A DNA stretch of 64,000 bases from Gerris lacustris (Eukaryota; Arthropoda; Insecta; Hemiptera; Gerridae). Below, piece by piece: positions 24,050-55,700 of the stretch. Within the stretch, counting starts at the first letter, position 1. Each line of letters starts with the position of its first letter. Position numbers and translations under genes: made by a program. The stretch covers positions 15,622,562 through 15,686,561 of the forward strand of contig OX578277.1 in assembly GCA_951217055.1 (NCBI GenBank). Reading direction: 5' to 3'. Below the pieces are notes generated by a model. That model made no database searches, had not been told where the DNA came from, and saw nothing but the letters and a program-made list of their open reading frames with translations.

Positions 24050-27000
24050 ATGGAAGAAATGACAGTTCTGGAGTTGTTTCGGGAAAAATTGTTTCGTTCT
24101 GATGTCTCGGAGACGAACTCTTGCTCTGAGTTGAACGATGAAATTAAGTTGAGACGATTGGAAGATATTAGTTCTCAAATTCGTAAAGATGAGCCCTACT
24201 TACTCAACAATCGTGGCAGAAAAATGCTAAGCTTAATTGGAGGTGCTGTCAATATTGATGTTATTAATGCTTGGCTTCATAATGATGTAGGTAAAGTTAT
24301 AACTTGATAGTAGAATAGATTGTAATACCTTAGCTAGTAACTTTAGTTTCTAGTGTAGAGTGTAAGTAAAAAGACATTGGTTTAGAGGAGCTCATTCTCT
24401 AATAAACTGTCACTTTGCAAATCTGAAAGGAAACGGAAAATTCATGTTGATTTCAACTAGCATTCGCCCCTATATATAAGTGTTATACCAGTACCCTAGA
24501 GTGCACGCATTAACATATTGTTTGTGATTTTGACAATTTTCCTATTTAATCCGAATTTTAAAAAAAATTCAAATTCGCATTTTGGTTTCAGTGAGTTACA
24601 GGCTAACGAATGGTTTTCTTGATTTTTCACAAGTTATTTTGTGTCCATGCCATGTCATGTGTAGGACTAGTTGTACGTTGTTGGCTAGTCAATGTACTTT
24701 TGTCTGCTTTTCTGTAGGTAAACTTAAGTTCGTCAATATTCTTACAAACTGTTAAAATGTCTTACGAGTTACAGTCTAAAGCTGCGTACACACTGGACGC
24801 GCATCGTGTTTGCAAACAGGTATGCGCGTCCGGTGTGGACGGCACCACACGCACGAACAAATGCTTGTTTGTGTTCACAGGTGCTCCGGGTAGAGTCGGT
24901 ACATCAATGGATGTTTGCTGTAAGTGCGAGTTTGGTGTGGAAGCTTTTTGAGCAAACTCCTTGAGCATTCACAAACAGCCTGTAGTTTGACTTGGAAACC
25001 CGGGAAAGGTATATTTTTTCATTCGTATTATTTATGACTATAGCATCAAACAACTATATTATAACTAATAATATATACTAATTAATAAATAGTGATTGAA
25101 ACTAGAGATGAGTTTATGTAAATCCAATTGATAAATAAATGAATGACATGAAAGTCCAAAATGCGTCATACTATTTTGTTAAATAATTATATTGCTTCCT
25201 AGCTTATTACTTAAGGCACAGGCTTATGGGCGTGAGCCTCCTATGGGCCTCATAAGACGAAATATTACATTGATATTTATCTTTTTTCACCAAAAGAACA
25301 GATTTCTATTTGTATAAAATTTTTATATGTTTTGGCATTGTATTTTTGTAGAAATAATAATCTAAAATCAGGGATGATCGAGGAGAATTTTTTTTTGACA
25401 TCCAGACTCTTTGTCTTCTTTTACTATTGCCATTCTCACCAATGATATATACCGCGTTTTGATAGAACCATATTACAAAGTTTATGGGAGTGCAATATAG
25501 TTTTACTTAGTACTAGTACTTGATGATGTAGTATATAAGAGAATAATGAAAAATAACTGGGAACAAGGACAAATGTTTGCAAACACCTGTTTGTCTAGAA
25601 TGCGCGTCCGGTGTGGACGTCGTGTTTGCTAATGTGCATTTGGTGTGTACGAGGCTTTACAGTAACTTACACTATTAAGTATCATCAGCACTGTTACAAC
25701 ATCATATTGTTATTACTATTAATTATCACTCAAGTTAAACTTCAAGCATTAACTCGTGTGACTATAACTCTTGACATCTTAACAGTTTGTATGAATATTG
25801 ACCAACATATGTGTACTTACAGAAAAGCAGACAAAATTACTTTGACTAGCCATGCAAAAGCTACATGATACTGATTCGAAAAGGTTATTTTATTTTTTTA
25901 ACGAGTTATATTTCATGTAACTCATGTGACCTGTGATTAAAATACTCGGTACTTTTTTACTTTAGCACCCCCCTATATCCCTTTGTGTTAATAGTTATTT
26001 AGACAAAGGAACATTATACAGAGTAGCTTATATTCCTTAGTCTAAATTACTATTAAGACGAAGGGATATTTATTCCAATGGACCTTGGGACAAAGGAATA
26101 TCACACTTGTGTATATAATTGTGATCATATCCCTTAGTCTAATCAACTATTAAGAACTTAACTTAAAACTGCCCCAGGAGTCTCAATGTCTTGAGGAGAC
26201 AAACACACAAACAAGACTTTTGTAGGACAGACTATTGTTTAAAATCAAGGGGTGTGCTAAAGTATAAAAGTGCCAAATAATCTACATGGAGACCAGGAAT
26301 AACCGGCCTGAATGAGAAGAATTCTTTAGTTTCGGGCTCTCAGAGGTCACTGAAGGCTTTTTCTTATGCTTATGAGGAGTGTCCCCTTTCTCACCACCCC
26401 GATAACAACAAAAGCCCTTTCCTCTCATCACCTTCTGTCCAAATCGTTACACGGGTGACTGACGTTCTGAAGAGTTCAGGACACAAACTTTATCTCCTTT
26501 AGCGAAATAACTATGTATCTCAGAAATAATTTGGTCTGTTTACTATGATTGATATGCAAGTATGTAATACTGAACTTTTAATTTCAGGAAATGCATTTGC
26601 CTCCTTTAGAACTACTATGCTTCCTGCATAGAACTGGTGTTATGCAAATCACTACTTTTCTTTACTAGTAAGTATATTTATCAATATTTTTTTTTTTTTT
26701 TTTTCTAATAAGGCGACTTGCAATGTGCCCAAGTCCGAGAGAGACTGACTCTAGTCTAGTGAGTGTTTATTCTCACTAGGGGCGAGTCTGAGCGAGGCAA
26801 GATCGAATCACAAGATCAGTATCACTGATAGCAGGAATCGGCCTCTCACCTTCCTATTTGTTATATTTTAAAACTTTTTACAAATGTTCAAATTGTTTAA
26901 ACTTCTTGTTATTGCTAGATGTCAGTAGATTTTACTTTATAACTTAAATATGCTGTGATACAATGGAATGTGACGTGGAGAACAACTAGTTCTCCCAAGG

Positions 27001-33000: not shown

Positions 33001-36000
33001 AAACGAGAGTTAGTGCGGGAAAACACAGATTGGCCATATTCTCTGAGGGAAAAAATAAAGCCACTATGTCTGTGGTTAGGATGGCCTCTCCCCTCCACTA
33101 GAGACATTTATCTTTGCCTAGTTGGCCCGCCTTTTTGTCCGGGAAAATCTCGAGCTCTTATTGGCTCCCCACCCCATTTGCTAGTTACTCCCGCGCTGTC
33201 AACGCACTAACTCTCGTTTGGGACAGACTGTAGGTCTACATTAAGTGGATGATAATAGAAAATATAACTTTAAAAACAAGTCTTTCAAACTATATTGATC
33301 TAGGTATTCCTGTAAATATCATGTCCCTAAGGAACGTGTTTTACTTTTAGCATAAAGCTGTTCTCAAAGCAAAGAAAAAATAAATAATAAATAACTGTTT
33401 CATGTTTCTGTAAAATTTATACAGCAGTCTTTCATCTAAAACTATGTTAATTACTGAAATTAATTTATTGGACTTCCCAAACAAAGATTCTCAATTAATT
33501 TTACAGAAAAAAAAACAAAAAACAAAAACAATTATAATAGCTATAGCTAGGTGTACTTAGATATGTTTTAAACGTTTAACTTCAATAGTATTATAAATGG
33601 TAACAGCCAGATAAATTATATTAGTAATCTTTGCTTCTATTTTATTTTTATTTTTTTTTTTTTTTTACTTTATGATCAATAACTAGTTCATTTTGGGAAA
33701 GATTGGTCTGCTACTGCTGCATTATGAATCTACACTAAGGGCTAATTCGTATTGTACGTGCCATCGAAACGTCTTCGAGTTAGACCTCTACCTGGTTTAT
33801 ATACAGGAGGGTTGTTTTTCTTCAGGAAATGAGCGGAGCACTGCGAAGCTTTGCAGAGCGGCTATTGAAAATTCAAGAGTACACAAAATTAATGTTTTTA
33901 ATTGAATATGCGAGATTTTATCACCTAATCTCAAAGTGGTGGCACGTACAATCCGAATTTACCCTACACTTATAGTTCTGGTTTAAAAAATAATTGGAAA
34001 AAAACTAATTTAACTTTTAACATAAAGCTGGTGGTTGTCTGTACTCTAATGTTAGTTAAATAAAATAATACAACTTGATAGTTATGTAGTACATATTGGA
34101 AAGTAGAACAATGACTGTTTCTTAATAATAAATTTTGTGAGACATTCTCATGATTTCTTCCTCTTGGCATCGATGTTTTTGTGGTAATCGTAAGAGTCAA
34201 CAGAAATAATACGTGTGCTTTAGTTTTAATCGGGAAAGAACAAGCGTGATGAAATATCGCTCATCAGCCAATCGATTCCACCGACTAAATTTTCACCTGT
34301 ATACGCTGAACATTTTGTAATCTGCCAATGATGTGATTGTATCTTCTCTAATTCTAATATTTCTTTAATCTCATCCAGTCCAATTCTTCCTGGCAAGTCC
34401 TGTTTGTTAGCTAGTATGAGTACGGACGCGCCTAACAATCTCTCTTCTGATAACAATTTGTGAAGTTCTCTACTGCAATCTGCCATTCTCATTTTATCAG
34501 TGCAATCTACAACCCATATAAGGCCGTCTGTACATTCGAAATAATTCCTCCAGTAAGATCTCAACGATGTCTGACCGCCGACATCCCATAGGTTCAAAAC
34601 GTAATCATTGTAAAGAACAGTTTTAATATTAAATCCTAATGTGGGTGAAGTTTCGCCCACGTCTTCGCCGTTAAGTCTTTTTAATATACTTGTTTTACCT
34701 GCGTTATCCAGTCCTAAGATAAGGATTCTCATCTCCTTCTCTTTGGCCTTGATCTTCTTTAATATTGATAAAAAACCCATGACTTTTCTTAATTTTAAAC
34801 ACACTTTAAACTAGAAAAACAAGATTTCTAAATAAATACGTATCTTTTCTCTTTCTTTCTTTATTTATAACCTGCTTCGGTAGTAGGTTATAAAACGAGG
34901 ATAACAACTTTCTAATTAAAGATCTGGTCTTTCATACACCCGCTCCCCCCCCCCCCCCCCCCCCCATTTTTTACAATTAAAATAAAGTTTTATAACTATA
35001 TAAACATATCTTCTGAATTACTTTTAATTTTTACTTAAATTTGCCATACCCATTTGTAATTTTCCGTTTTATTGTGTACTTTTTTACACGTTAAAAATAT
35101 TTCCTGTTTTTAATAGTTCTTTTTTTTTTTTTAAATACATAAAAAATATCACACTTAGTGAAAACATTGGAACATCTGGATTGGAAGGCCTGAACCAAAA
35201 CTTTACTAACTAATATTGGAGCATTATGCTTAGTTTAGGATCTCAATACAGTAAGGTGTACAATAAGGTACATTGGTAGGTGTACATGTAACTTCAATAT
35301 GATATAGTAGAAACTTTTGGTGTAGCGACCTTGAGATTAACTAGATTAAATAGAGTGCCTTTACATGGAAAGATACGGTACTCAGATCGTTTTCAATACA
35401 CCATGTAAACATAACTAGTAATAATATATGTTTTTGTTTTCAATTATTTAAAAAAAATATAGATTGAAACTTTCTTTTGGATCTCCTGTAAAATTTCAAT
35501 TGTTACACATAAGAGATACTTTCTATGAAAGACGTTTTCTTTCATAATGTCATCAATGTAGCTCTTCTTAAAGAAGAGCTACATTGATGACATTATGAAT
35601 AGCACTACAGCTCTCTTTTTAAGAAGAGCTGCAGTTATTGATGAGGCGGCTTGTCAACAGGGACTATCAAGCCCATAATTTTAGGGCCTCAATTCTTCTA
35701 CCACTATCTGGTATGATCAATATTATAATTATAATTATTGAAAAATATATGTAATACATTGCAAAATTTATTGATCTACCCCTTTTTTTTTTTAAAATTC
35801 TTGAAAAAATGTTAGATGAAGGTTAATTATGTTTTATTTCTTATTTTCTAGTAAACCAGAATTCTGTGCAGAAATTAGTTCCCAATTGGTGGAGATGGTG
35901 ACCAAAGAGTTTCCTGCTAATGAAGATCAAGATGTTGTTAATGATATTGTTAAAATAGTTTTATCTTCAATGATTAATGTCGGCAATCATTCACTGAGAG

Positions 36001-39000
36001 AATTATTCTCTTTGTCATCTTCGGTGATGGAGTCATTTACTTCTATTGTAAGTTTATACAGTATTTTATTTTACTAAAATGCAACTTTAATTAATTTAAT
36101 ATCACGTTTAGTTTGTAGAATAGATCTATAAATAATATTCCTTACCTTCTTTTGAGGTTACTCCTAATAGTTTTTTTATTTTGCTAATGCAAAATTTTGA
36201 ACAAATCGAAAGGTACAAATATCTATACAAACAATTAATTAAGTAAATACAAGGTGTAGCAAATAAAAACAGCTTTATATTCCTTCACAGTACTCTCCCC
36301 CAAGAGCAACAGACTTGTGCCAGCGTTTCTCCTGTAATTTTAGAACCATTTGGCGTAGTCCTTTGAAGTCTCGAAACATTTGGCGTAGTCCTTTGAAGTG
36401 GAGCCCTTTAAAACGTTAGTAGTAGCCATTTGAATGGCCTGTTCTGCCTAAAAATGATGGCCTTTAAGATTATTTTTCTTATGTGGTAATAGAAAAAAGT
36501 CACAAGGAACGAGATCAGGGATGGGGTACAGGGATTTGTTTTCGAGCCAAAAACTGACACACAGCAAGTGAAGAATGACAAATTTTTCAATTTTCAAAAT
36601 CAAATTTTTTGGAACCTTTTTGCACACTGTTTACGCATGTGCAAATGTTCATGAAGCATTTTTCTTATGCTTTCTTTGTTAATTTCTAGTTCAAATGACA
36701 TCATTCTAAGCATTAACCGCTGATCTGAAAAAAGTTTATGATCTCAAACGTTAGACATTCGAATTTGTGGTCGTGACGATGGGGGCACCTTGTCGAGGGC
36801 CGTCCTATATCGATTTCTCCCTTCTTTAAACCGTCGAGCCCACTCAAACACACACGCTTGCAATAAAGAGTCACTCCCATACACTGCACAAATTTTTCTG
36901 CCACTTTTCACCTGCTTTAACTAAAAACTTCACCACAGTTGTCTGTTCGATATTTCTATTTCACTCATTTTTCAAAACTGAAATCTCAAACAATTACCGA
37001 AATGCAGTTGATAATAATATGGATTTTGGTACAGTAACCTGGTATATTGTATTTGTTCAATAACAAACCTCAATTAGTGCGTAAGTGTTGCCACAGAAAC
37101 CTCATAAAAATTCTCGTTATTTATTTGCCACACCTGCTACTTGATAAAAGTGTTGTTTTGGTTAAATGACTTGTATAATATAGTACACTTGAGGGAGCTA
37201 GCGTAGCCGTGTGAGTTAAACCACGTCTGCTCGGCCATCACTGAATCTCGAGTGGAACGAGACGGGGTTCGATTCCTCGCCGTGACACTCTGATTTATAT
37301 GGCTCACTATTGATCACATCATACTCGCTTTGGCGGTACTATGTACAGAGGTATGATGTGTGAAGTGGCTGGAACTCTCTACCGCGGGGCGTAAAAAGGG
37401 CCTAAGTGATGGCCTAATTGCAAGGTTCGAACAAGTGGTTCGTCCTACCCGTCCTAGTAGAAAGTACTAGACTACTACTACTACTACTACTAGTACACTT
37501 GAAAACCACTCATAGGGGCACTTTTTGATAACAGAAGTTAGAAGTATTGATTTTGCTGCTCGATGGTTATTTTAAAATTTTATTATGATTTTTTTTTTTT
37601 TTGCTCCAGTTAATCGATGCGTTATTCACATTAAAAGAAGATTTGAAGTTAGAATTTTTGAACCTTGTTATTAAAGAGAGGAGTGTATTTCAAGAAGGAA
37701 TGAAATCTTTTGCCGCATTTCTATTGAATTCTCTTCTACTGCATGATACTAAGTCTATGACTTTCCAGACTGCAATCGGAGTCCATCATAAACAGTGGAC
37801 TTCCCAAAATATACCTGTAAAATTCAAATCTCTTTACAATCAGGTGACTTTGCTTGTTATTTTACTGAAAATTTATTTTACTTTATTATTATTTTAAAGG
37901 TTGGAAAAATATAAAAAGTTAAATAATAGATTTTGAAATGAGCTATATGATCTAATAATTAAATATTATTAGCCGAAAAATAAATTGGGTAGAAATTAAT
38001 AAAAACTCTTCTTTACTATGATTAAATTAACTTTTATCTGGTTCCAGAACAATTATGAAAGCTCATAGTATATTGGCAATGAGCAAGATAAGATTTATTT
38101 CTAGAAAAAGTCTTGTCAAAATAGATATTAAAGGTGAATCATTTAATTCTTAAGGTGGGGACACACTAGAGCATTCGCCCCGAATGAGCATGCATTCGCC
38201 CCTGAATGAGCATGAGTTCCGAGCACGCGTTCGCTCAGAAATGGATAGGGCGAGCCGAACGGAAACGCATGCTCATTCGGGGCGAATGCTCAAGTGTATC
38301 CCCACCTTTATTGGAAAATTAATGAAAACAGTCAACTTCTATCTTTAAGGAAATCGATAAATTGTTGTAATAATTTTATTAACGGTGCTTTGTCTTTGCT
38401 TAGTTGGAAACACTTCTCACCAAGGAGGGAGTAATGAGGGAAGTGGAGTTGGTTTTAGACGACACTAAAGTAAATTTAACTCATCTTCTCTACGTCATTG
38501 CTTTAATGTCTCAACATTCTGATCAATCTGACCACTTAGACATTGTTAAAGGTATAAAGTAAATCTAACTCATCTTCTCTATGTCATTGCTTTAATGTCT
38601 CAACATTCTGATCAATCTGACCACTTGGACATTGTTAAAGGTATAAAGTAAATCTAACTCATCTTCTCTATGTCATTGCTTTAATGTCTCAACATTCTGA
38701 TCAATCTGACCACTTGGACATTGTTAAAGGTATAAAGTAAATCTAACTTATCTTCTCTATGTCATTGCTTTAATGTCTCAACATTCTGATCAATCTGACC
38801 ACTTGGACATTGTTAAAGGTATAAAGTAAATCTAACTCATCTTCTCTATGTCATTGCTTTAATGTCTCAACATTCTGATCAATCTGACCACTTAGACATT
38901 GTTAAAGGTATAAAGTAAATCTAACTCATCTTCTCTATGTCATTGCTTTAATGTCTCAACATTCTGATCAATCTGACCACTTGGACATTGTTAAAGGTAT

Positions 39001-42000
39001 AAAGTAAATCTAACTCATCTTCTCTATGTCATTGCTTTAATGTCTCAACATTCTGATCAATCTGACCACTTGGACATTGTTAAAGGTATAAAGTAAATCT
39101 AACTCATCTTCTCTATGTCATTGCTTTAATGTCTCAACATTCTGATCAATCTGACCACTTGGACATTGTTAAAGGTATAAAGTAAATCTAACTCATCTTC
39201 TCTATGTCATTGCTTTAATGTCTCAACATTCTGATCAATCTGACCACTTGGACATTGTTAAAGGTATAAAGTAAATCTAACTCATCTTCTCTATGTCATT
39301 GCTTTAATGTCTCAACATTCTGATCAATCTGACCACTTGGACATTGTTAAAGGTATAAAGTAAATCTCATCTTCTCTATGTCATTGCTTTAATGTCTCAA
39401 CATTCTGATCAATCTGACCACTTGGACATTGTTAAAGGTATAAAGTAAATCTAACTCATCTTCTCTATGTCATTGCTTTAATGTCTCAACATTCTGATCA
39501 ATCTGACCACTTGGACATTGTTAAAGGTATAAAGTAAATCTCATCTTCTCTATGTCATTGCTTTAATGTCTCAACATTCTGATCAATCTGACCACTTGGA
39601 CATTGTTAAAGGTATAAAGTAAATCTAACTCATCTTCTCTATGTCATTGCTTTAATGTCTCAACATTCTGATCAATCTGACCACTTGGACATTGTTAAAG
39701 GTATAAAGTAAATCTAACTCATCTTCTCTATGTCATTGCTTTAATGTCTCAACATTCTGATCAATCTGACCACTTGGACATTGTTAAAGGTATAAAGTAA
39801 ATCTAACTCATCTTCTCTATGTCATTGCTTTAATGTCTCAACATTCTGATCAATCTGACCACTTGGACATTGTTAAAGGTATAAAGTAAATCTAACTTAT
39901 CTTCTCTATGTCATTGCTTTAATGTCTCAACATTCTGATCAATCTGACCACTTGGACATTGTTAAAGGTATAAAGTAAATCTAACTCATCTTCTCTATGT
40001 CATTGCTTTAATGTCTCAACATTCTGATCAATCTGACCACTTGGACATTGTTAAAGGTATAAAGTAAATCTAACTCATCTTCTCTATGTCATTGCTTTAA
40101 TGTCTCAACATTCTGATCAATCTGACCACTTGGACATTGTTAAAGGTATAAAGTAAATCTAACTCATCTTCTCTATGTCATTGCTTTAATGTCTCAACAT
40201 TCTGATCAATCTGACCACTTGGACATTGTTAAAGGTATAAAGTAAATCTAACTCATCTTCTCTATGTCATTGCTTTAATGTCTCAACATTCTGATCAATC
40301 TGACCACTTGGACATTGTTAAAGGTATAAAGTAAATCTCATCTTCTCTATGTCATTGCTTTAATGTCTCAACATTCTGATCAATCTGACCACTTGGACAT
40401 TGTTAAAGGTATAAAGTAAATCTAACTCATCTTCTCTATGTCATTGCTTTAATGTCTCAACATTCTGATCAATCTGACCACTTGGACATTGTTAAAGGTA
40501 TAAAGTAAATCTAACTCATCTTCTCTATGTCATTGCTTTAATGTCTCAACATTCTGATCAATCTGACCACTTGGACATTGTTAAAGGTATAAAGTAAATC
40601 TAACTCATCTTCTCTATGTCATTGCTTTAATGTCTCAACATTCTGATCAATCTGACCACTTGGACATTGTTAAAGGTATAAAGTAAATCTAACTCTTCTT
40701 CTCTACATCATTGCTTTAATGTCTCAACATTCTGATCAATCTGACCACTTGGACATTGTTAAAGGTATAAAGTAAATCTAACTCATCTTCTCTATGTCAT
40801 TGCTTTAATGTCTCAACATTCTGATCAATCTGACCACTTGGACATTGTTAAAGGTATAAAGTAAATCTAACTCATCTTCTCTATGTCATTGCTTTAATGT
40901 CTCAACATTCTGATCAATCTGACCACTTGGACATTGTTAAAGGTATAAAGTAAATCTCATCTTCTCTATGTCATTGCTTTAATGTCTCAACATTCTGATC
41001 AATCTGACCACTTGGACATTGTTAAAGGTATAAAGTAAATCTAACTCATCTTCTCTATGTCATTGCTTTAATGTCTCAACATTCTGATCAATCTGACCAC
41101 TTGGACATTGTTAAAGGTATAAAGTAAATCTAACTCATCTTCTCTATGTCATTGCTTTAATGTCTCAACATTCTGATCAATCTGACCACTTGGACATTGT
41201 TAAAGGTATAAAGTAAATCTAACTCATCTTCTCTATGTCATTGCTTTAATGTCTCAACATTCTGATCAATCTGACCACTTGGACATTGTTAAAGGTATAA
41301 AGTAAATCTAACTCTTCTTCTCTACATCATTGCTTTAATGTCTCAACATTCTGATCAATCTGACCACTTGGACATTGTTAAAGGTATAAAGTAAATCTAA
41401 CTCTTCTTCTCTACATCATTGCTTTAATGTCTTAACATTCTGATCAATCTGACCACTTGGACATTGTTAAAGGTATAAAGTAAATCTAACTCTTCTTCTC
41501 TACATCATTGCTTTAATGTCTCAACATTCTGATCAATCTGACCACTTGGACATTGTTAAAGGTATAAAGTAAATCTCATCTTCTCTATGTCATTGCTTTA
41601 ATGTCTCAACATTCTGATCAATCTGACCACTTGGACATTGTTAAAGGTATAAAGTAAATCTAACTCATCTTCTCTATGTCATTGCTTTAACCCTTTGAGT
41701 ACTGAGTGATTTATTCTAGGGTTGTAGCGCAGGCCTGAGCAAGCAATTGAGGAATGTTCCACCCTGGCCTGAGTCATTTTCTACCCTACACATTACATGT
41801 AACACACTTTTTTAATGCCATTGCCTTTTTCCCCTGCCAATAATTAAGCTAATTTGTAATATATTTTTACACATTCACAATATATAAACCTTATTTTACA
41901 GTAATATTTTTTAAAATAATATTTTTTTTTTAAAATAATTGTTGCAAAGTGAGTATATACATAATAATTTCCGGCAAGGATTGGTGAATGAGGTAATTGA

Positions 42001-45000
42001 TTATACGGTTATTATTTTTTAATCTACAGTAATGTAGAAAGAATGTCTACATCGTTTTAAGAATTTATATTTTATCGTGTACCCGCAAAGCGCTTACATA
42101 CATACACAAAGCCATAAACTGAGCCTATAATGTACAGATCTTCCGCTCTAGACTCTCTCTCTCTCTTTTGATGAATTTATAATATAATATTATAATTTTT
42201 GTGAAAGCAAAAGCCCCATCCTCCTCTTTGATCCCCATCCTCCTCTTTGATCCGGGCACAGAAATTGGAGCTGAACTAGGCCCCGCAATGTCTTGCTGCC
42301 TTTTGACATAAGAAAATTCATCGTCTGAACTCTCGTCGAAATCTTCCTCACGATCACTTCTTGTGAGAATATCTAACAACTCCTTATCTGTCCATAAACG
42401 TCTCCTATTCCTATCTACAGGCATTATTCCGCTAATAAATAAAATAAACCGAATAATTTATAATAATAACTAAAACCGAAAGAAGTCCAAAAAAGTAAGC
42501 CAGGTCAGATCGATAACGTCAATATAAACACAAAAATTAAGATGAGAATTCCGAGAGTAAGCCAAGTAATTTAGGTAACATCAATAAATGCGAGAGTTTT
42601 GAAGAGGTGTATAAGGTTTGGTGTTCGAACAAGAACTGAGGTTGTAAAAGATTTTTGGCATTTAGCTCCCAACCTAACGGTACAATATTTACTAGAAAAT
42701 AGGAAAAAAGGACGGGGAAAGCCGGTTAGACCCTACATAATATAATAGAGTAGGTAGAAAAGGATCCGTATTTGCTGAGAGATTGGAAAAAAGTGAAAAA
42801 GGATTAAGGCCTAGAGCTCGGTGCATGAGGTAGATGCGTGACGGGATCTACAACCCCTAGATGACGACATCTCGTCTATCCTTTCTTTTCTATCAGCAAC
42901 CCTCGCTCCATCTAAACGACCCTTTATAGAACCTATTAATACCACCGACAACAACTAGAAAGCGCTAGATGTACAATCTCGGGCCTCTAAACAAGAAAGA
43001 ACTGTCCCCGTAAATTTACGTCAGTAGGCCTGAGGACATCAAAATGGTTGACGTAAATTTACGTCAGTAGGCCTGATGGCAGTAGGTCTGTTGACGTAAA
43101 TTTACGTCAGTAGTACTCAAAGGGTTAATGTCTCAACATTCTGATCAATCTGACCACTTGGACATTGTTAAAGGTATAAAGTAAATCTAACTCATCTTCT
43201 CTATGTCATTGCTTTAATGTCTCAACATTCTGATCAATCTGACCACTTGGACATTGTTAAAGGTATAAAGTAAATCTAACTCATCTTCTCTATGTCATTG
43301 CTTTAATGTCTCAACATTCTGATCAATCTGACCACTTGGACATTGTTAAAGGTATAAAGTAAATCTAACTCATCTTCTCTATGTCATTGCTTTAATGTCT
43401 CAACATTCTGATCAATCTGACCACTTGGACATTGTTAAAGGTATAAAGTAAATCTCATCTTCTCTATGTCATTGCTTTAATGTCTCAACATTCTGATCAA
43501 TCTGACCACTTGGACATTGTTAAAGGTATAAAGTAAATCTAACTCATCTTCTCTATGTCATTGCTTTAATGTCTCAACATTCTGATCAATCTGACCACTT
43601 GGACATTGTTAAAGGTATAAAGTAAATCTAACTCATCTTCTCTATGTCATTGCTTTAATGTCTCAACATTCTGATCAATCTGACCACTTGGACATTGTTA
43701 AAGGTATAAAGTAAATCTAACTCATCTTCTCTATGTCATTGCTTTAATGTCTCAACATTCTGATCAATCTGACCACTTGGACATTGTTAAAGGTATAAAG
43801 TAAATCTAACTCTTCTTCTCTACATCATTGCTTTAATGTCTCAACATTCTGATCAATCTGACCACTTGGACATTGTTAAAGGTATAAAGTAAATCTAACT
43901 CTTCTTCTCTACATCATTGCTTTAATGTCTTAACATTCTGATCAATCTGACCACTTGGACATTGTTAAAGGTATAAAGTAAATCTAACTCTTCTCTATGT
44001 CATTGCTTTAATGTCTCAACATTCTGATCAATCTGACCACTTGGACATTGTTAAAGGTATAAAGTAAATCATTTATACTTTTTGGTTTATTCAATACCTA
44101 GTTTATATTTATTTATTTATTTTTTCGATGTACAACTCTGCAAACAATAAATTATTTTACTATTTTATTACTTCGAGTTGTGGTATGTTATCAATTGATA
44201 AAGAGTCATTATTTGGAGCTCAAAAATGTCTAAATAAACTTAACTATATAAAATACTGAGGTAGAAGGACTAAATAATTAATAATTCCTTTTTATCGGAA
44301 GTGAGGCAACATCCTAGTGACTGATTAGTATTTCTTATAAATTGGGTCAAAGTCGAAAAGGGGGTCAAAATACATTCAGTGTGGCCCAAAAGTGGGTAGT
44401 ATATTTAAAAAGGATAATTGTATTAAATAATATTAATATGTAACTGACACAACTTCAAATAATGTTTTAAAATTAGTTTTATGTTTTATTTCATTGAATT
44501 TTCATTGTTAATAAATCTAGATCTTTCGGAGGAGACCATATCTGAGTGAATCCTAAAATTTTGAATCCATAACAGGATGTTGCTCGTAATGAGCAAATGA
44601 GCAACTCCCTTCGGAACAATCCCTTGAATGGATTTGGAACACAAAATTGTAATTGTGATTTTGTAATCGTTAGGATTACAAAATCTTCTGAGGCGATCTC
44701 CTTCTGATGATCTACACTAATTAGACTCCGTTTGAAATCAGTGTTGCAGGGCCGTAACTACCACCGGGGCAACCGGGGCATTGCCCTGGGGCCCCCAATC
44801 TGACGGCCCTATTTGAATTTTAATGGGCAAAACGAAATAATGTGAATTTTAAAAGCCTTTTATCAAAAAAATTAGTTTCAGGAGAGAATAATTATGGACT
44901 ATACTATAATTAAACGGTTCTTTTGAAACTAGGGGGCCCCTAGAAATTTACAGAAAAAGATTCAATATTGGCAACGTATGACAAACGTAGTTCACCAGTA

Positions 45001-48000
45001 AGTTTTTTGAGGACTATGACACGGTGAACTGACAAAAAACTCTGACGCTTACTCAATATATTGTTCACCTTTATCAAGTTTTTCCCTTAAACTGTTACGA
45101 AGAGATCGTATTATAAGTTATACATGTATTTATGTAGTAGCCTAACTAAATTAATCAGAAGGTAGGTGAGGGGTAAGGATTTAGCTATAGAGGCTAAATT
45201 AGACATTTTCGATTTTGGGTCATGCGCAAAATAAAATACTATAGATGTGGGTAATTTGACCTCTAGAATGCATTTAAAACACGTTTTGGGTGGTTATTTT
45301 TCAAAACATTTCCGGGGGAGGACCCCCGTACCCCCCTTTTTCTGGGGGGAAGTATACCCTCGACACCACGAAGGGCCCCCAGAATAATCTTGCCCCAGGG
45401 CCCCCAAGATTGTAGTTACGGCCCTGCAGTGTTGTTTAATCTCTCAAATGCTCAAAATATCCTCCATCAAGGTTACAATAATCTTTAGACCAATCCTTGT
45501 CTCACAATATGACACAAATTGTGGTCTGAATCAATGTCGATGAAGATTTAGCTCTTAAGTTATGCATTTAGAAATAAAAGATTATTTAGACTTAAGTTTA
45601 TTATTATTTTTCCTCTTATCTTCAAAAAAAATTTATTGTTAAAGTAAGAATTTAGCAAATGTGTTGTGGGAGCTAAAAACAAAGCATTTAGCATCAAGGA
45701 TAGACTGTGAATGAGTATTAAGTATATATTTTGTCAGCCTGTCTGTATTAGAAATAATATGTTTATCTACGATTGAAACGAAATATAAACATTATATCTT
45801 TGTTTAGATGCGTAGAAAGTGATTATTTACGTACTTGTATTCATTGCGCATGCGCGTCTCATAGATCTGAATGATTCCTCTTCTTTACCACACTAGTGCG
45901 GTAAAGAAGAGGAATTCTTCAGCTTTACGCACGATTAGAGAGTTTGTTTACATTTAACAAAACTAATTTGCTATTCTTTTATTAAAATAACTGTTTATAT
46001 CGAGTTTTTAGTGAAAAACAATGAATGAATCAAGTGGCTTTGACGAAAATGTAGAGAATAATACTCCTCCAGAAATAATTAATTCGGCAACAAATACAAC
46101 TCAAGATTAATTCCATCTTTATCAAGAGAAGAGATACGAACTTACATGCAGCAAGTTTAATTTTTATCTGTATTTATTATTTAAATCTAACAATCGTAGA
46201 TAAAGTACGGTACGCAACTCGTGCGAAAACGGCATTTGCATTGCTCGTGTGGTTTTACAACCCTCGCTGTCGCTCGGGTGCAAACTCCACACTCGCATGC
46301 AAAATGCTACTTTCCGCACTCGACGCGTAATGTACTATTATAGTATCTGAGGGGTCTATATTTTGAATTTTATTTTTAGTGCCCCATAAAATGAAATGTT
46401 CAGTTAAAACGGGGGATGCACTTTACTTTTAAAACTTTAAAATACATTACTTGTCAAAACCTTAAAAGATTAAATGGTTGTCAAATATATATAGAATATC
46501 ACTTTTAAGTAGAAGTGATAATAAGTTAATAGTTCAGGAGATAGCATTAAAAAAAGTTTCTGACTAATATCAAGCTAGAATTTTGGTGAATAAGTTAATG
46601 TTTTGGTACCTTTTAAGAATATGTGGTTGTCTAAGTTCGTCTGCAGGACATAGCTTGGCAATAGGCGTTTGAAAAACACAAACCAGAGGAGAGCGGTCAT
46701 ACCCCACTCAGTTTAGTGGACAATGAGATTTTCATAATCCTGAATAAAAAATTATTTAGTAGACCAAAATTCAAGTTGATGTTAGTTTGTGATTTGGTAG
46801 GTGATTTGGAGTAATATTTGAATGACTAACCTATCGAGTGATAAACTAATATCAACTTGATCTTGGTCTAATAACTAAAGTTTTACTCAGGATTAACGAA
46901 ATCACATTGTCCACCAAAATGGGCTGGGCATGGCTGTTCTCCCCCGGTTTGTTTAATTCAAATGCCTATTGCATTAAACTATGCCCCGCAGACGAACTTA
47001 GACAACCACTTATTCTTAAAAGGCACCAAAAGATGAATTTAGTTTGTCAGACACTTTTTTTCACACTATGTTCTGGACTATAAGTTGTACAGTGTTACTG
47101 CTGATTAATAAGTTTTATTTTAAATGTAATATTTTTGTTGCAGCAACTGCAGATAAATGGTTTAAAGAAGCCCTGATTGAGAGGAACGAGTTACATCTTG
47201 GTTTGGCATTACTTGTAACTAGACATCATTTTGCCGAGGTCTCAAAATACTTTGTCAGTTATGCTAATTGGTTTGGATCTGTTCAAGCTAAAAATGTACT
47301 GACCTTAAATTTCTTTTTTGAATTTCTCTCAAAGCTTGTACCATTTGAACCGGCTGTCTTTCTGAAAATTCAAGTCACAAAGGTACTTATTAAGTTAAAG
47401 AGTTTATTTAATGTTTGCAGTAATCTCATGAAAAGGTAAAAATAATAAAACAGAAATTAATATTAAATGTTTGTCTGTTAAAGGTTCCATCAGGGCCATC
47501 ATCCTGCCAAGATGTAATCAGCGATTATATTGCTCTTGCTAAGACTCGTTTGTCAGATATGAATCAAACTTATGACTACATAAGTCTGTTTAATGATTTC
47601 CATGAAACTATTGAGGTAAAGTAGACAACTTGTTGAATCTCTCGTCAGACTAAGGCTGTTTTTAATTTCAGTCAATACTTAACTTTTGTGATAGTATGGT
47701 TCTAAAATAAAAAAATATTAGTCCACTTCATGGGAAAACATTCAATCATGAATATATTTTTCTGTTCACTCCAAGAGGAAAAATATAGTACTAAAAAACA
47801 AAATAGTATTTTGTCAGAAGTATTTGAAACTGACTCTATATGACACAAAAACAACAAAACTATCACTGTCATAACTTCTTTGTCAACCTTTAGTGGCGAT
47901 ATATAGAACTAAAAGTAAAAACTGAGCGACCTCCTGTTAGATTCAAAATATCTGGTGTCTACTCTATTTAAAATATTTAATTTAGCGTACATATTGGAAA

Positions 48001-48599
48001 ACTATAGTACTAAAAATTAAAACTGCCCAACCTCCTGTTAGATTCTAACTTCCTGGTAGCTAGCATCACTTTTTTGATGTCCTTTTTTATGTGATAGAAA
48101 TTTCCAGACCTAAAAATATCCATGTTAAAAATTAATATTGAAATCTTGAATGTTTGCACCTAATCTGTTGTAGCTATTGTATACTGTTGTTTGCTATTGT
48201 GTTTTTCTCTTTTTGGGGGGTTTTTGCTCTTTGAGTTTCATTTACTGTTTTAATTTTATTCCTTTAGCTTGAAGAAAACACAATTTTGTTCACTGCTGCA
48301 TAAGGAGATATAAGAGCATCCCTCTTTATAGTTTAATATATGTTCTCAGACATCCTCTAATCTTATCTGTTTATTTTCAGGAGCAGCAAGAGTCAGATGT
48401 AAAGAGAGTACTGGCGCATTTCTCTGATAATAATGAAGTTAGCAAAGCTGTACTAGAAGCATCAGTATTCCGCAAGCAGTACTATGAGAAAATATTCTTA
48501 CCGTGTCTCTTATCAGCACCTAGGGGTTCCGATAAAACAAGAGATCAGCTCATTATTAAACTTAATACTATTGGAAAGTTACCATCCTCTCTCTATAGA
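24050..48599 (+). CDS. FANCA: Fanconi anaemia group A protein (FANCA), N-terminal and central part
   Basis: FANCA is a scaffold subunit of the FA core complex, which ubiquitinates FANCD2/FANCI in crosslink repair. Eight exons join in phase (1485 nt, 495 codons): 24050-24286, 26588-26667, 35852-36047, 37610-37843, 38404-38551, 47144-47382, 47484-47615, 48381-48599. Best matches to vertebrate FANCA are in exons 6-8: [37 protein letters not shown] and FLPCLL, LPSSLYR. Exons 1-5 are weaker but in the right order. The vertebrate protein is about 1450 residues; the C-terminal half is not found. Exon 8 may splice at GTATGG (48600) or read on six codons to a TAA (48619-48621). Exon 1 uses donor GTAGGT. 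Introns hold ARL2, a BEL/Pao element and the exon-derived minisatellite. Confidence 0.9.
24287..24654. other. FANCA intron 1, no feature
   Basis: AT-rich intron start; nothing recognised. Confidence 0.5.
24655..25872. repeat. Foldback element with long terminal inverted repeats
   Basis: Left arm text GGCTAGTCAATGTACTTTTG at 24683 is mirrored near 25851. Both arms continue through a GTCTGCTTTTCTGTA block and a (T)CAATATTC..ACAAACTGTTAA block into a CpG-rich inner repeat (GCGCGTCCGGTGTGGACG at about 24824 and 25603). The centre (about 24965-25570) is AT-rich and non-coding. It lies in FANCA intron 1; exact ends and target duplication are not resolved. Confidence 0.75.
25873..26587. other. FANCA intron 1, dispersed repeat
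   Basis: No gene. The segment 25970-26165 (GGGACAAAGGAATATCACAC, CCTTAGTCTAA) is related to text at 3530-3600 and 56040-56130. Confidence 0.5.
26668..27062. other. FANCA intron 2, start
   Basis: Poly-T at about 26682-26704, then a segment (26755-26808, GTGAGTGTTTATTCTCACTA onward) that recurs at about 30600-30650 on the other side of the BEL/Pao element. Confidence 0.6.
27284..29704 (+). CDS. BEL/Pao gag-protease polyprotein (internally deleted)
   Basis: Frame of 806 codons with intact gag and protease parts. In order: helical gag N-terminus, gag core with [16 protein letters not shown] (DUF1759 type, about residues 127-330), CCHC-like knuckles [16 protein letters not shown] and [12 protein letters not shown] (about 362-405), and the aspartic protease motif [12 protein letters not shown] (about 486). 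Near residue 707 the frame jumps from [19 protein letters not shown] to a stretch resembling the post-RT connection ([16 protein letters not shown]), so the reverse transcriptase was deleted. ATG at 27284 follows the leader about 100 bp after the LTR. Confidence 0.88.
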   Translation: MELQKKSRKANRAVLTRTITKMEQLTAIVPPDVTTIRTLLTALDERYLAIKALDVAIFEGMLTEDTSENDLETELSSAEEYLLKYQKVKTDLESFIPPAQNPQSEGPSRLETARSGGFPGGQSKRFKLPKIEFIRFNGEVKEWLIFWGQFKKIDDDSDMSNDDKFQYLLLATVPNSRAREVVESFPPGGEHYKSAISSLKDRFGREDLLIEYYIRDLLKLVLQNSTGQQTLSLGSLYDKLRSHLRALETMWGDASKCGPMLYPMIESCLPEEMLRAWQRAPKLSQTTPKGRLDELMKFLLSEVEAEDKITLAMSGFGLSDNNYSNKGGKVPEIFPTAASLVSASKIEKKYESNSTNIKCIFCSKGHKSAECFGAQKMSLDEKKKILRYKKRCFSCLGGSHSANKCPAVLCCLVCGKRHIPLMCPDLPANKTDRGVEKKEKASEANFPGTSTACASVSGVPEVFLQTMLVRVNGKNKSKIVRALLDTGSQRSYLLADIISELGYVSCRKEEIVHALFGGTKTDKVCLSGYKINISSLDQSFQCDIETLEQKVICKSITPVIPGPWNLELEKYNIKLTDLGQKPTPIGLLLGADVAGKLLKGNRKVLECGLIAMETLLGWTLMGKVEAEKGTFSYSGVAAVLHSSTEANITDLWNLDLLGIKDPGEQKSKKEVEIATKEEFLRTIVRIEDGSFEISFPLSLDSPPLPSNRLLAGRRLRGATAKLLKENTDKTSVLRVGWHKELDKLSVYLYWVKKTSLNLVVITKKVILSFGYKLFDPICVLSPFVIKAKGLKGVPAALPLDRVQGSV
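29697..30335 (+). pseudogene. BEL/Pao integrase fragment
   Basis: Continues the polyprotein in a shifted frame: [42 protein letters not shown] and [14 protein letters not shown] match the BEL integrase core. One catalytic neighbourhood is altered (YDHVYNGTN in place of the usual SDNGTN), so the enzyme is probably inactive. The C-terminal part runs into the 3' LTR. Confidence 0.85.
30432..32205. other. FANCA intron 2, unassigned
   Basis: No gene. It holds the second copy of the 26755-26808 segment at about 30600-30650 and C-rich tracts at about 31958-31978. Short minus frames at 30811 and 31159 have no family features. Confidence 0.5.
32206..32760. mobile_element. Harbinger-type MITE
   Basis: Terminal inverted repeats AGGCCCGTTTACACGGTGAT, mirrored at the right end, with TTA on both sides (32203-32205, 32761-32763), typical of PIF/Harbinger. 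Inner GATAGTT / AACTATC motifs are repeated. Non-coding. Confidence 0.88.
32990..33230. mobile_element. Tc1/mariner-type MITE
   Basis: Inverted ends CAGTCTGTCCCAAACGAGAG (mirrored at 33211-33230) flanked by TA; 241 bp. The arms extend through GTTAGTGCG. No coding capacity. Confidence 0.9.
33733..33966. mobile_element. Small inverted-repeat element
   Basis: Ends AGGGCTAATTCGTATTGTAC / GTACAATCCGAATTTACCCT are inverted repeats. The interior (CTACCTGGTTTATATACAGG through AATGAGCGGAGCACTGCGAA) is shared with 57065-57135 inside another element. The 70-codon frame here is incidental. Target duplication is not clear. Confidence 0.75.
34226..34780 (-). CDS. Arl2: ADP-ribosylation factor-like protein 2 (ARL2)
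   Basis: Complete 184-residue small GTPase. ARL2 works with tubulin cofactor D in tubulin folding and in release of prenylated cargo. Visible motifs: P-loop [14 protein letters not shown] (about 23-36), switch I TLGFNIKT, switch [20 protein letters not shown] (about 65-82), NKQDLPG (about 125) and CSAYTGEN. The [18 protein letters not shown] start is diagnostic of ARL2 against other ARFs, so the ATG at 34780 is chosen rather than the in-frame ATG eight codons upstream. Intronless and antisense within FANCA intron 2; either retroposed or an old nested gene. Confidence 0.98.
34805..35540. other. FANCA intron 2, ARL2 upstream side
   Basis: Contains a CTTT microsatellite at about 34844-34866 and a C21 run at 34945-34965. 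It probably includes the ARL2 promoter; no motif is distinctive. Confidence 0.5.
35541..35599. repeat. Perfect 59-nt palindrome (29 bp arms)
   Basis: Arms read TTCATAATGTCATCAATGTA onward and pair perfectly around one central A. A second, imperfect hairpin (CAGCTCT..AAGAGCTGCAG) follows at about 35606-35637. It lies 250 bp upstream of FANCA exon 3. Confidence 0.95.
36250..37137 (-). mobile_element. mariner-like transposon remnant
   Basis: Inverted ends CAAGGTGTAGCAAATAAA and its mirror TTATTTGCCACACCTGC, flanked by TA. On the minus strand near 36750-36920 the decayed N-terminal helix-turn-helix of a mariner transposase is readable ([25 protein letters not shown], then GRPSTR in another frame). 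Frameshifts and stops throughout. FANCA intron 3. Confidence 0.8.
37193..37490 (+). mobile_element. tRNA-derived SINE, copy 2
   Basis: Best copy of the family, 298 bp. Head GGGAGCTAGCGTAGCCGTGT with box A, box B GGGGTTCGATTCCTCG, a body with TCACATCATACTCGCTTTGG, and a (CTA)n tail at about 37466-37490. Perfect 12 bp duplication TAGTACACTTGA (37181-37192, 37491-37502). FANCA intron 3. Confidence 0.93.
38153..38307. mobile_element. Harbinger-like MITE (155 bp)
   Basis: Ends AGGTGGGGACACACT and AGTGTATCCCCACCT with TTA on both sides; inner arms GAATGAGCATGC / GCATGCTCATTC make it almost a full hairpin. It lies in FANCA intron 4, about 100 bp before the exon 5 acceptor. Confidence 0.88.
41691..43124 (-). 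mobile_element. piggyBac-type element, internally deleted
   Basis: Inverted ends CCCTTTGAGTACT / AGTACTCAAAGGG with TTAA on both sides (41687-41690, 43125-43128), the piggyBac signature. The right subterminal region has three copies of TTGACGTAAATTTACGTCAG. Removing the insert plus one TTAA leaves exactly one 89 bp unit. Confidence 0.95.
42125..42424 (-). pseudogene. piggyBac transposase N-terminus
   Basis: A 99-codon frame beginning [14 protein letters not shown] followed by acidic [16 protein letters not shown]; the acidic N-terminal segment is typical of piggyBac transposases. The DDD catalytic domain and cysteine-rich tail are absent, so it is a remnant inside the non-autonomous element. 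A short direct duplication (CCCATCCTCCTCTTTGAT twice) is near 42216-42252. Confidence 0.7.
44070..44738. other. FANCA intron 5, unassigned
   Basis: AT-rich; nothing recognised. Confidence 0.5.
44747..45426. mobile_element. hAT-type MITE
   Basis: Ends CAGGGCCGTAACTACC and TGTAGTTACGGCCCTG, flanked by the exact 8 bp duplication CAGTGTTG (44739-44746, 45427-45434). Subterminal GGGGCCCCC tracts pair with each other. 680 bp, non-coding. FANCA intron 5. Confidence 0.93.
45805..46345. repeat. Dispersed repeat, copy 1
   Basis: Shares GATGCGTAGAAAGTGATT, GTTTACATTTAACAAAACTA and a CpG-rich block (GTACGGTACGCAACTCGTGC to AATGTACTATT) with 49975-50312. A hairpin with 16 bp arms ATTCCTCTTCTTTACC is at 45874-45915. 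Confidence 0.8.
46532..47078. mobile_element. Palindromic MITE, copy C
   Basis: Starts GTTCAGGAGATAGC, ends ACTATGTTCTGGAC, TA on both sides. 547 bp and near-palindromic about a centre near 46805. It ends 65 bp before FANCA exon 6. Confidence 0.92.
47616..48380. other. FANCA intron 7
   Basis: Intron sequence with two related segments (CTAAAAGTAAAAACTGAGCG near 47910, CTAAAAATTAAAACTGCCCA near 48011, each followed by CCTCCTGTTAGATTC). No exon seen. Confidence 0.55.
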
Positions 48600-48645
48600 G
48601 TATGGTCAAAGTCAAGATAACATTTTTAATGTGTGATTTTTAATA

Positions 48646-52700: not shown

Positions 52701-55700
52701 TTGGAAAAATCAATTGTTTTCACCCCCTTATAATATGCTCCCCTATTTTGATAAAATTTTGCAATTTATACATGAGATTTTACGGCAATAAAGAGGAAGC
52801 TGAAAAGGCTGTTAAAAAATAAAAGCTTGTAAAATAGATACCACCACTGAGAATTGAACCAAGGATCTGTGAGTTAGTGTTAATCTCACATCAATCAAAC
52901 CATTAAAAGAATTACTCTGTCCTAGAGTGATGTAGCATAACACAATGAACAGTAATAGATTCCTTCAGCCTGGAAGTTTTATCTCCTTTTCTTTTTTAAA
53001 CATAATATTTTAATTACTCTTTCAAAAACAAAATAATAATTGAACAAATACCTTATAGCTGTGTTCTAGGTTTCTAATTTCTTTTTCTTTAAGAGTTGTG
53101 TACATTTCATTAAAAAGAAGACCTAAAAACAAAAGATCAAACGTGTATAAATAAACTTATGATATTATCGTGATTTTTAAGGGCTTTTTTTTACAAATTC
53201 ATACATAAATGATTTTTAGGTGTAAAAAATTAAATAAGTTAATTAGGTATCATGAGATGTTTGGACCCTATTATTAAAAATGGTCAACCTCAGTCACTTT
53301 AATGTCCCAATCTCAAGGAGATAGAATTTTACAAAACGTGTAGCATAATATTACAATTACTAAAAAATAAACAATACATGCCAGAATATTCAAATCATAA
53401 TTCTAATAAATAAAGAAGAGGCTGATCCAGTTTTATTAGTATATTTGTCAGAACTCATTTATAGAAAAATAAATATACTACTATACCCTTGGTTCTACAT
53501 TCTCCGAGCTGAAGTTGGTCAATAAGTTCCAGTATGTGTTTAATTTTATTCTCTCTCTCAGTCAATTCAGCTGCATTCATATCTGCAATTATAAACTCAT
53601 CATATACTTAACATAAAGATGATTAAATAAATAAATGTTGAATTCCAATGATGAAATTAAAGCAATATTAATTTGAGTGGATTTTTATTCACATATAAAA
53701 CAATATAATAGATTTATTTCATCTTAAAGGTTTTATTACTTATCCTATTTTATATTTTATATAATTTATGAAATATTACAAGGTAAACTTATTGCCAAAG
53801 AAATCTTTAAAAGCTAAAAAAAAAGGCCAATGAATATAAAAAATTGAAATTAATTGATGAAAGATTACAGTGAATTGTCCAGTGTCCAGTCAATACAGAT
53901 TTTCTTTTTCTAAGAGTGGCACTTTTTCTAAAGAAGAACATTGAGCTAAGATTTCTTCAAGCTAAGTTTTAGATTTAAACTCTTTACTAATGCTGATGGT
54001 GACACAATGAGAACTGGCATCAAAGAAAACAATTTTATATTAAAGTCAAAAAGTTAATAAAACAATTTTTTTACTATAATATCAACGTCGATGTATTCTT
54101 AGCCATAATACTGAACTAAAAGGAAATTGAGTGGAGTTCAAGGTGGTACCAGATAGGGTTGCCATCTCTCCCGGATTTCCGGGATTCTCCCGGAAGTAGG
54201 CTCTTAAAATAGTAATCTCCCGTCTCCAGGAAGTATTTAGTAATAATTCATATTCTCCCGGAATTTGAAGTTGGACAGTCGGTGTCCCTTGTGAGAGTCT
54301 GAGTCTAGTTTCCTGGATGACGGGGACGGGACGGGTACGATTATGACAATTCAGAATTCAGTAAAATGAGCATGCTTTCCATGAAAAATCCAATCTCTTG
54401 GGATAACTTGAGAGATTTGGCCAATGATCTAAAGATAAACATAGAAGAGGATAAACTTTATGACGATTTTTGTGTTTTGAGAGAGGTTCAAGATACTATT
54501 GCAAAATCATTTGAAAGAGTGGACCTGAGGTGGGCAAAATTTTTTTCAACTGTTGAAGTCGGAGTTGGCGCTATGTTAAAAAAACTGGTTTCTTGTGTTT
54601 TGTCTGTACCTGTGTCGAACGCCCAATGTGAGCGAATTTTTAGTATAGTCTTTGATATATGGACTAAAGAAAGAAATCGTTTGAATGAACAGCATGTAAA
54701 GGCAGAGATGAGATACAGACATTTGTAAACTTTCAAATGGAATGTAAAGAATTTTTTAAATTTGTGAGTTCAAGGCCTGAAATTCTTAAATCTGTTCATT
54801 CTAATGAAAAATATAAGTTTAAAATCAAATAATAATATGCATGTGTAATAATTTTCTCTCCATTACTCTTCTACTATTTACTCTGTTCAATGAAAAATTT
54901 AATTTTGAAATAAAAAAAAAAAAAATATGTCTCAAATTATTTGTTGTATTTTGAGTGTTCTCTTTATTTTGGTGGTCGCTGGTGCAGTGGTAATGGTAAC
55001 TATTATAATTATTATTATCTCCCGGAATCAAAAGACCAGGAGGTGGCAACCCTAGTACCAGACCAATTTTTTCATATAAAGCTGTTTATTTTTAAAATAA
55101 ATAAGACTGACCCTGTAAGTTGCTTCTTTGAGAGAAGATTGCCCTGAGTGTACTATCCAACACCATATGATTATTCATTGGTAGAGAGAGATTAATCTTT
55201 GATTTTCCAGGATTAGATGCTAGGATGCTGCTGGCTATCAGTGCTTGTCCATTACTCAGAGATCTAGCGCAGCAACTGCATTTCCACTCACTCCTGAAAT
55301 AAATAAACAAAATTATTATCAGATATTGCCAATAACAAATGAAAACAAGTAAGGCGCCCTTCACGTAAGTACGTGAGGCGATAATCGTCGGTTTCTGTAC
55401 AATTAAATTAAAATTATAAGGGTAAAATTTCAATAGTTGCATATTCTATACTTCAAGACCTTTAAATTGATGTATAACATGTCATGGTAACTAAAAACTT
55501 ATTTTAGTCGCCCGCCATATTGGCTGCCATCTTGAAAATATTAAGTGTAAAATTTTAATAGATGCATATTGTTTTTCCACACTTCAAGACCTTTAAATTG
55601 ATGTATAACATGTCATGGTGACTGAAAACTTTTTTTAGTCGCCCGCCATATTGAAAATATTAAGTGTAAAATTTTAATAGTTGCATATTATTTTTCTTCA

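What the first reader, a model, noticed from the sequence alone, without database searches (positions are those of the whole stretch)
38404..44069. Coding exon end plus splice donor amplified into a 46-copy minisatellite inside FANCA
The 89 bp unit is the 3' part of FANCA exon 5 and the first bases of the intron, including the intact donor AAAG|GTATAAAG. Junction spacing gives 46 extra copies. The original exon already contains TAAAGTAAAT and the intron begins GTATAAAGTAAAT, so slippage or unequal exchange between these two matches explains the birth of the unit. Every unit therefore offers a decoy 5' splice site identical to the true one, but no acceptor. Reading through gives an immediate TAA (AAA GGT ATA AAG TAA), so use of any decoy would truncate FANCA. 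The array could modulate splicing of a DNA repair gene and is expected to be length-polymorphic.
Basis: partly seen in the sequence, partly recalled or inferred. Interest (0 to 1): 0.9.

Follow-up and report, generated by a model that had tools for sequence, protein, structure and literature searches.

The report
Splice donor copied into 46-unit array
In what looks like a water strider genome, the end of one exon of the FANCA DNA-repair gene, together with its splice signal, has been copied 46 extra times in a row just downstream, so the cell meets 47 identical "cut here" marks of which only the first is predicted to give a working protein; this is likely a harmless but very informative natural test of how cells choose where to splice.

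Summary
An exon (38404-38551) of a well-supported FANCA gene is followed by 46 tandem copies of an 89-bp unit: 86 bp of exon end plus 3 intron bases. All 47 donors are identical over 20 bases; the genome search found the array nowhere else. Its ends share TAAAGTAAAT, consistent with birth by exchange between exon and intron. Two things were missed. A 1,434-bp piggyBac-like insertion (TTAA duplication) splits one unit. And "no acceptor" is too strong: each unit runs GT...AG, with CTGAC about 20 bases before its end, so each boundary is AG|GT, the form of dual-specific or recursive splice sites; the acceptor is weak but scores close to one this gene is predicted to use. The protein alignment supports the first donor; any other gives K-G-I-K-stop. 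Most likely this is a young intronic minisatellite, tolerated because the first donor, 148 nt from the acceptor, wins; mis-spliced inserts would be degraded or re-spliced. Splicing use and length variation are untested. Host, by COX1: a Gerris-like water strider. Closest known case: tandem dual-specific sites of polyubiquitin UBC.

The parts
26588..26667 (+). FANCA coding exon (80 nt), EMHLPPLELLCFLHRTGVMQITTFLY; called 'exon 2' here
   Evidence: tblastn of P0001, E 5e-4; ag|GAA...CTA|gtaagt and phase fit to exon A read
35852..36047 (+). FANCA exon A
   Evidence: spliced model, Pfam, alignment A1
37610..37843 (+). FANCA exon B
38404..38551 (+).
   Evidence: alignment has no gap at the C|D junction
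38552..38559 (+). True donor AAAG|GTATAAAG (first intron bases)
   Evidence: phase and protein alignment
38552..44056 (+). Array of 46 tandem units (39 x 89, 6 x 85, 1 x 86 bp), each GT...TTAAAG; last donor GT at 44057
38466..38475 (+). TAAAGTAAAT, exonic member of the birth homology
44060..44069 (+). TAAAGTAAAT, intronic member of the birth homology, followed by CATTTATAC
38538..38538 (+). Diagnostic base: A in the exon (TTA), G in 45 of 46 units (TTG)
41691..43124 (.). 1434-bp piggyBac-like insertion in unit 36 (TTAA 41687-41690 and 43125-43128; 13-bp inverted ends CCCTTTGAGTACT)
   Evidence: 32 other full-length copies listed in the genome at 91-98%
47144..47382 (+). FANCA exon D, acceptor TTGTTGCAG|CA in phase with exon C
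47484..47615 (+). FANCA exon E; its own predicted acceptor is TGTTAAAG|GT, like the unit boundary
48381..48620 (+). FANCA last coding exon F with stop
   Evidence: 4 of 5 homologs end within a few residues of the same point; P0002 runs on for about 200 residues

Best explanation
This is a minisatellite, likely young, made of 46 tandem copies of the end of a FANCA exon plus its splice donor; it lies wholly in the following intron and is predicted to be spliced out with it, because the first of the 47 identical donors is likely the one used. Shown: the anatomy, the shared TAAAGTAAAT at the two ends, identical donors, unit types shared between blocks, and a transposon sitting inside one unit. Inferred: the first unit arose by slippage or unequal exchange between the exonic and intronic TAAAGTAAAT; the array then grew and was homogenised by multi-unit exchange. 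Inferred: the first donor wins because it alone lies 148 nt from the acceptor and is made first, whereas decoys would define exons of 237 nt or more. Inferred: occasional decoy use adds whole GT...AG units that carry a stop, and is removed by mRNA decay or by a second splice from the true donor to the AG that ends the inserted unit.
For: Spliced model with the first donor: Fanconi_A_N 6.4e-26 and FANCA_helical 4.1e-13, FANCA chains of the PDB 4.5e-27, 5 homologs with E 1.9e-69 to 3.9e-49, no gap at the C|D junction and a Lys invariant in 6 of 6 rows just before it (a 2-residue gap lies a few residues upstream). All 46 decoys give a stop 52 codons after the exon start. The word BBEBBBFG of unit types occurs twice, 12 units apart (p 0.0048 in 5000 shuffles). 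At two variable sites all four combinations exist (exon, B, D and F types), which needs exchange or repeat mutation. The base after the homology is C in all 46 units and in the flanking intron but T in the exon, as an exchange there would leave. The TTAA duplication places the insertion after the array.
Against: No RNA data, so donor choice is inferred. The true donor is not stronger than the decoys (same sequence, dG -5.7), and two GTs inside the exon (38431, 38443) score nearly as well (-5.3), so pairing energy does not single it out. Each unit's AG is not negligible (82nd percentile of 878 intron AGs). 'Young' rests on the lack of any required change in the exon copy; exchange with the exon could hide age. 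The block-repeat test was chosen after seeing the pattern.
Confidence: 0.66

Rival explanations
1. The array is a working ladder of dual-specific or recursive sites: each AG|GT acts as acceptor and then as donor, so the intron is removed in 89-nt steps, all ending in the same mRNA.
For: Every boundary is TTAAAG|GTATAA and the consensus unit has CTGAC about 20 nt before its end. The next identical donor lies 85-89 nt downstream for 44 of 45 decoys; a downstream donor closing a cryptic exon is what recursive sites need (passages of PMC8605326). Exon E's own predicted acceptor has the same TGTTAAAG|GT form. The gene has a 101-nt predicted intron. In UBC a site with a 3' score of -0.21 is used (PMC10809524 Discussion; a different scoring scale).
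Against: Acceptor score is weak: -0.47 against 0.03 to 8.17 for seven predicted FANCA acceptors; 67th percentile among 46 intronic AG|GT (recalled weights). Unit AT content 0.674 is below the 101-nt intron's 0.792, though within the 0.632-0.701 of three longer introns. AG|GT comes free with any consensus-like donor.
Confidence: 0.2
2. The array tunes FANCA output: more units mean more decoy use and more transcripts with an early stop, so array length sets the level of functional FANCA.
For: All 46 decoys are identical to the true donor over 20 bases and all give a stop.
Against: By general knowledge only the nearest few decoys define exons of ordinary size; there are no data here on polymorphism or expression; nothing shows selection on unit number.
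Confidence: 0.12
3. FANCA is decaying in this lineage, and the array is tolerated because splicing no longer matters.
For: Exon(s) for the first ~58 residues were not found in the window (whose output was cut).
Against: Seven exons are open with fitting phases and splice sites and A-F align along their length with the homologs. The missing first exon is poorly conserved among the homologs and may lie upstream.
Confidence: 0.05
4. Assembly artefact.
For: Long near-identical arrays are error-prone in length (general knowledge).
Against: Ordered variants, a single transposon with a clean TTAA duplication inside one unit, and different flanks on the two sides.
Confidence: 0.03

Closest known systems
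Tandem dual-specific splice sites of UBC and VCX3A (PMC10809524: abstract, found passages and Discussion read)
   Same: An AGGT in every repeat unit; unit-multiple segments run GT...AG; expansion can be hidden by splicing; UBC unit number varies from 3 to as many as 46 between species, so a high copy number is not new by itself
   Different: UBC units are coding and in frame; here the unit is exon end plus intron start, 89 nt (not a multiple of 3), gives a stop, and lies outside the predicted coding part; use is not shown
Intron gain by tandem duplication (Rogers model; potato RdRp PMC4974935, fission yeast PMC3629103: passages read)
   Same: Tandem copies carrying splice or proto-splice sites; the potato copy crosses an intron-exon boundary; the fission-yeast introns lie in several 24-nt units
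   Different: Here the intron already existed and no new intron is gained; the copy number is far higher than in those cases
Internal tandem repeats at human exon-intron boundaries (PMC2812944: Results read)
   Same: Minisatellites that lengthen exons or introns at a boundary; 27 intron changes reported; one family (morpheus) reaches 39 coding copies
   Different: Those average 30-bp units repeated 4 times, in segmentally duplicated genes; this is 89 bp x 46, carries the donor in each unit, in a locus with no other match in the DNA search
Recursive splicing ratchet points of Drosophila (PMC8605326: passages read)
   Same: Juxtaposed AG|GT with a donor a short way downstream
   Different: Weak pyrimidine tract; 46 identical sites in one 8.6-kb intron; no evidence of use

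Membership tests
FANCA gene | Fanconi_A_N and FANCA_helical domains over Pfam cut-off | tested here: met
   92 bits (cut-off 27) and 50 bits (cut-off 28)
FANCA gene | FANCA C-terminal domain (PF03511) as in vertebrates | tested here: inconclusive
   Best match in the genome 17.4 bits, under the cut-off of 22 and elsewhere, but that search works exon by exon; 5 of 5 retrieved homologs carry only the N-terminal and helical domains
Minisatellite at an exon-intron boundary | Tandem units of about 10-100 bp that span the boundary | tested here: met
   46 units of 85-89 bp, starting from exon 38466 and running into the intron
Minisatellite (VNTR) | Copy number varies between individuals | not testable with these tools
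   One assembly only
Dual-specific splice site array (UBC type) | AGGT in each repeat unit | tested here: met
   47 of 47 boundaries read AAAGGT
Dual-specific splice site array (UBC type) | Usable 3' splice signal upstream of each AG | tested here: inconclusive
   CTGAC about 20 nt before the end; weak pyrimidine tract, score -0.47 with recalled weights
Dual-specific splice site array (UBC type) | The same sites used as donor and acceptor in RNA | not testable with these tools
   No RNA reads
Recursive splicing ratchet point | AG|GT plus downstream donor closing a short RS-exon | tested here: met
   Next donor 85-89 nt downstream for 44 of the 45 decoys that have a next donor, 1527 nt for the other
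Recursive splicing ratchet point | Strong pyrimidine tract before the AG (recalled) | tested here: not met
   10 of 17 pyrimidines at -20..-4; the predicted acceptors of exons D and E have 10 of 17 too, so this does not exclude weak use
piggyBac-type transposon (the insertion) | TTAA target duplication and terminal inverted repeats | tested here: met
   TTAA on both sides, 13-bp matching ends CCCTTTGAGTACT
piggyBac-type transposon (the insertion) | piggyBac transposase | tested here: inconclusive
   The 110-aa minus-strand ORF has no Pfam match at E 0.01; a shortened, non-autonomous copy would have none

The most novel reading that the evidence does not exclude
The array is a self-erasing splicing ladder: 47 identical AG|GT boundaries each able to act as acceptor and donor, so that any splice into or out of the array leaves a GT...AG remainder that can be spliced again, and nearly all paths end in the same FANCA mRNA. 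Expansion of a splice donor into a satellite would then be buffered by its own design.
Probability: 0.2. Interest if true: 0.78.

Novelty: new variant of a known kind. Interest (0 to 1): 0.55.

Why it matters
How a cell picks one 5' splice site among equals is, to my knowledge, usually studied with a few copies in a minigene. Here is a natural gene with 47 copies identical for 20 bases around the cut, in a series at 89-nt steps, with one base at position -14 that separates the true exon (A) from 45 of 46 decoys (G). RNA reads from the species would show directly how donor choice falls with distance. It also bears on whether AG|GT at donors makes boundary repeats tolerable, since every extra unit is itself a GT...AG segment.

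Tried and rejected
Purifying selection from synonymous changes: the exon differs from the unit consensus at 3 sites, all synonymous (Leu, Tyr, Leu). I first read this as old divergence under selection and dropped it: the C at the first site is also the flanking intron's base, and the exon's bases at the other two survive in F/G units and in unit 4, so no change in the exon is needed.

The exon-2 position used and in the notebook (26589-26669) is off by 1-2 bases; 26588-26667 is right (sequence; used; acceptor). The 'exon2' rows are to be ignored. The notebook's '>=40 copies' of the insertion family is also loose: one search lists 78 matches, many of them pieces, of which 33 are full-length, this one included.

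A first exon was sought with an N-terminal profile from 4 of the 5 homologs against + strand ORFs of window 1-26700 and by tblastn (output cut in the middle): only exon 2 stood out. The numbering 'exon 5' is thus plausible, not proven.

In the window itself this is the only TRF array of 10 or more copies with a unit over 3 bp.

Literature: 10 search calls were made; 9 ran and one search failed. In the listings (titles and starts of abstracts) of those aimed at donor-bearing repeats I saw no case of an exon end plus donor amplified to tens of copies; the library lacks most subscription papers, so this is no proof of absence. One search (FANCA in insects) gave nothing that I used.
Full report
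What is there. The window lies at G000:C2:15622562-15686561 (+) of a 937-Mb assembly in 69 contigs.

The gene. Six exons on the + strand (A-F, 35852-48620) join with fitting phases, and a seventh, 26588-26667, precedes them. The A-F protein (395 aa) matches Fanconi_A_N (6.4e-26) and FANCA_helical (4.1e-13), FANCA chains in the PDB (4.5e-27) and 5 proteins in the database search, among them ones named from Apolygus, Lygus and Macrosteles. The alignment has no gap at the exon C|D junction (a 2-residue gap lies a few residues upstream), and the last full codon of exon C is a Lys invariant in 6 of 6 rows; 4 of the 5 homologs end within a few residues of our stop, while P0002 runs on for about 200 residues. 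This supports use of the first donor, GT at 38552, without any RNA. The C-terminal domain PF03511 has no match over the cut-off in the genome (exon by exon) and is not listed for any of the 5 homologs. The first coding exon was not found.

The array. 47 copies of GTTAAAGGTATAAAGTAAAT lie in the + strand. Cut at each GT, they bound 46 units: 39 of 89 bp, 6 of 85 and 1 of 86. Thirty are identical; seven unit types exist. In order, with A for the exon copy: ABBCDBBBBBEBEBBBCBBBBEBBBFBBEBBBFGFEBBBBEBBBFGH. BBEBBBFG occurs twice, 12 units apart; 0.0048 of 5000 shuffles of the order reach that score (the score was chosen after seeing the string). No other place in the genome matched the first 297 bases (22 matches, all local; the search scores only its best candidates).

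Birth. The exon reads TAAAGTAAAT|TTAACTC, the flanking intron TAAAGTAAAT|CATTTAT, and every unit TAAAGTAAATC followed by TAACTC, or by TC in the 6 E units, which lack four bases. The units thus join intron to exon at the shared 10-mer, the C being the intron's base. This is what slippage or unequal exchange between the two 10-mers would give. The exon's states at two other sites survive in some units, in all four combinations over exon, B, D and F types, which points to exchange among units or repeat mutation. No change in the exon since birth is required, so the array is probably young.

The insertion. Bases 41691-43124 (1434 bp) split unit 36. They are flanked by TTAA and bear 13-bp inverted ends CCCTTTGAGTACT. 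The genome search listed 78 matches, many of them pieces; 32 other places match over the full length at 91-98% (40 of 417 candidates scored, so copies are undercounted). An ORF of 110 aa on the minus strand has no Pfam match; its resemblance to a piggyBac transposase start is recalled. Since the insertion sits inside a unit, it came after the array.

Splicing logic. The 47 donors have the same sequence and so the same U1 pairing energy (-5.7; four other FANCA donors -5.4 to -8.2, U1 end recalled, exon-2 row excluded). The measure is crude: two GTs inside exon C (38431, 38443) score -5.3. Joining any decoy to exon D gives the same stop, 52 codons from the exon C start. What sets the first donor apart is place: 148 nt from the acceptor, against 237 nt and more. 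Each unit ends TTAAAG|GT with CTGAC about 20 nt before its end. With recalled weights this AG scores -0.47 (82nd percentile of 878 intron AGs; 67th of 46 AG|GT), close to exon E's predicted acceptor, TGTTAAAG|GT, at 0.03, but below the other six (1.3-8.17). The gene has a 101-nt predicted intron, so an 89-nt intron is not clearly too short. It follows that a decoy splice would insert whole GT...AG units, which a second splice could remove. Whether this happens is unknown.

Known relatives. Human UBC has a tandem array of dual-specific AGGT sites; introns in tandem repeats whose length is a multiple of the unit are 8.4-fold in excess; UBC unit number ranges from 3 to as many as 46 between species (PMC10809524). 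Tandem duplication of splice-site-bearing segments is a route of intron gain (PMC4974935, PMC3629103). Minisatellites at exon-intron boundaries alter 27 introns in human segmental duplications, and one coding family there reaches 39 copies (PMC2812944). Ratchet points need a nearby downstream donor (PMC8605326). So neither a high copy number nor AGGT-bearing repeats are new by themselves. The present case differs in unit make-up (exon end plus intron start, out of frame, with a stop) and in lying wholly in a pre-existing intron of a gene with no second copy in the DNA search. I rate it a new variant of a known kind.

Limits. No RNA, no second individual, no close relative's DNA. Unit count rests on one assembly. 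Acceptor weights and the U1 end were recalled, not fitted to this species.

Noticed in passing
window 34226-34810 (-): An uninterrupted ORF for an Arf-family GTPase (Arf 7.8e-70; ARL2-like by recall) lies on the opposite strand inside a FANCA intron: a nested, intronless gene or retrocopy.
   Followed up: partly
window 35852-48620; P0001-P0005: FANCA in this bug ends after the helical domain, and the 5 homologs found list only the N-terminal and helical domains; PF03511 of vertebrate FANCA has no match over the cut-off in the genome.
   Followed up: partly
G000:C1:5210962-5212302: A stretch of the large contig C1 scores the same as the mitochondrial COX1 of C69 (E 5.2e-124, 12 TGA): a very recent mitochondrial insertion or a misassembly. 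Several partial copies lie elsewhere.
   Followed up: no
window 41691-43124: TTAA-flanked family with palindromic subterminal repeats (GACGTAAATTTACGTC) and 32 other full-length copies listed at 91-98%; perhaps recently active.
   Followed up: partly
window 57916-61715 (-): Minus-strand ORFs, one with a SET domain (two others tested there had no match), look like a SMYD-type gene downstream of FANCA (SMYD by recall).
   Followed up: no
window 54321-54728 (+): hAT transposase C-terminal dimerisation region (PF05699, 1.8e-6).
   Followed up: no
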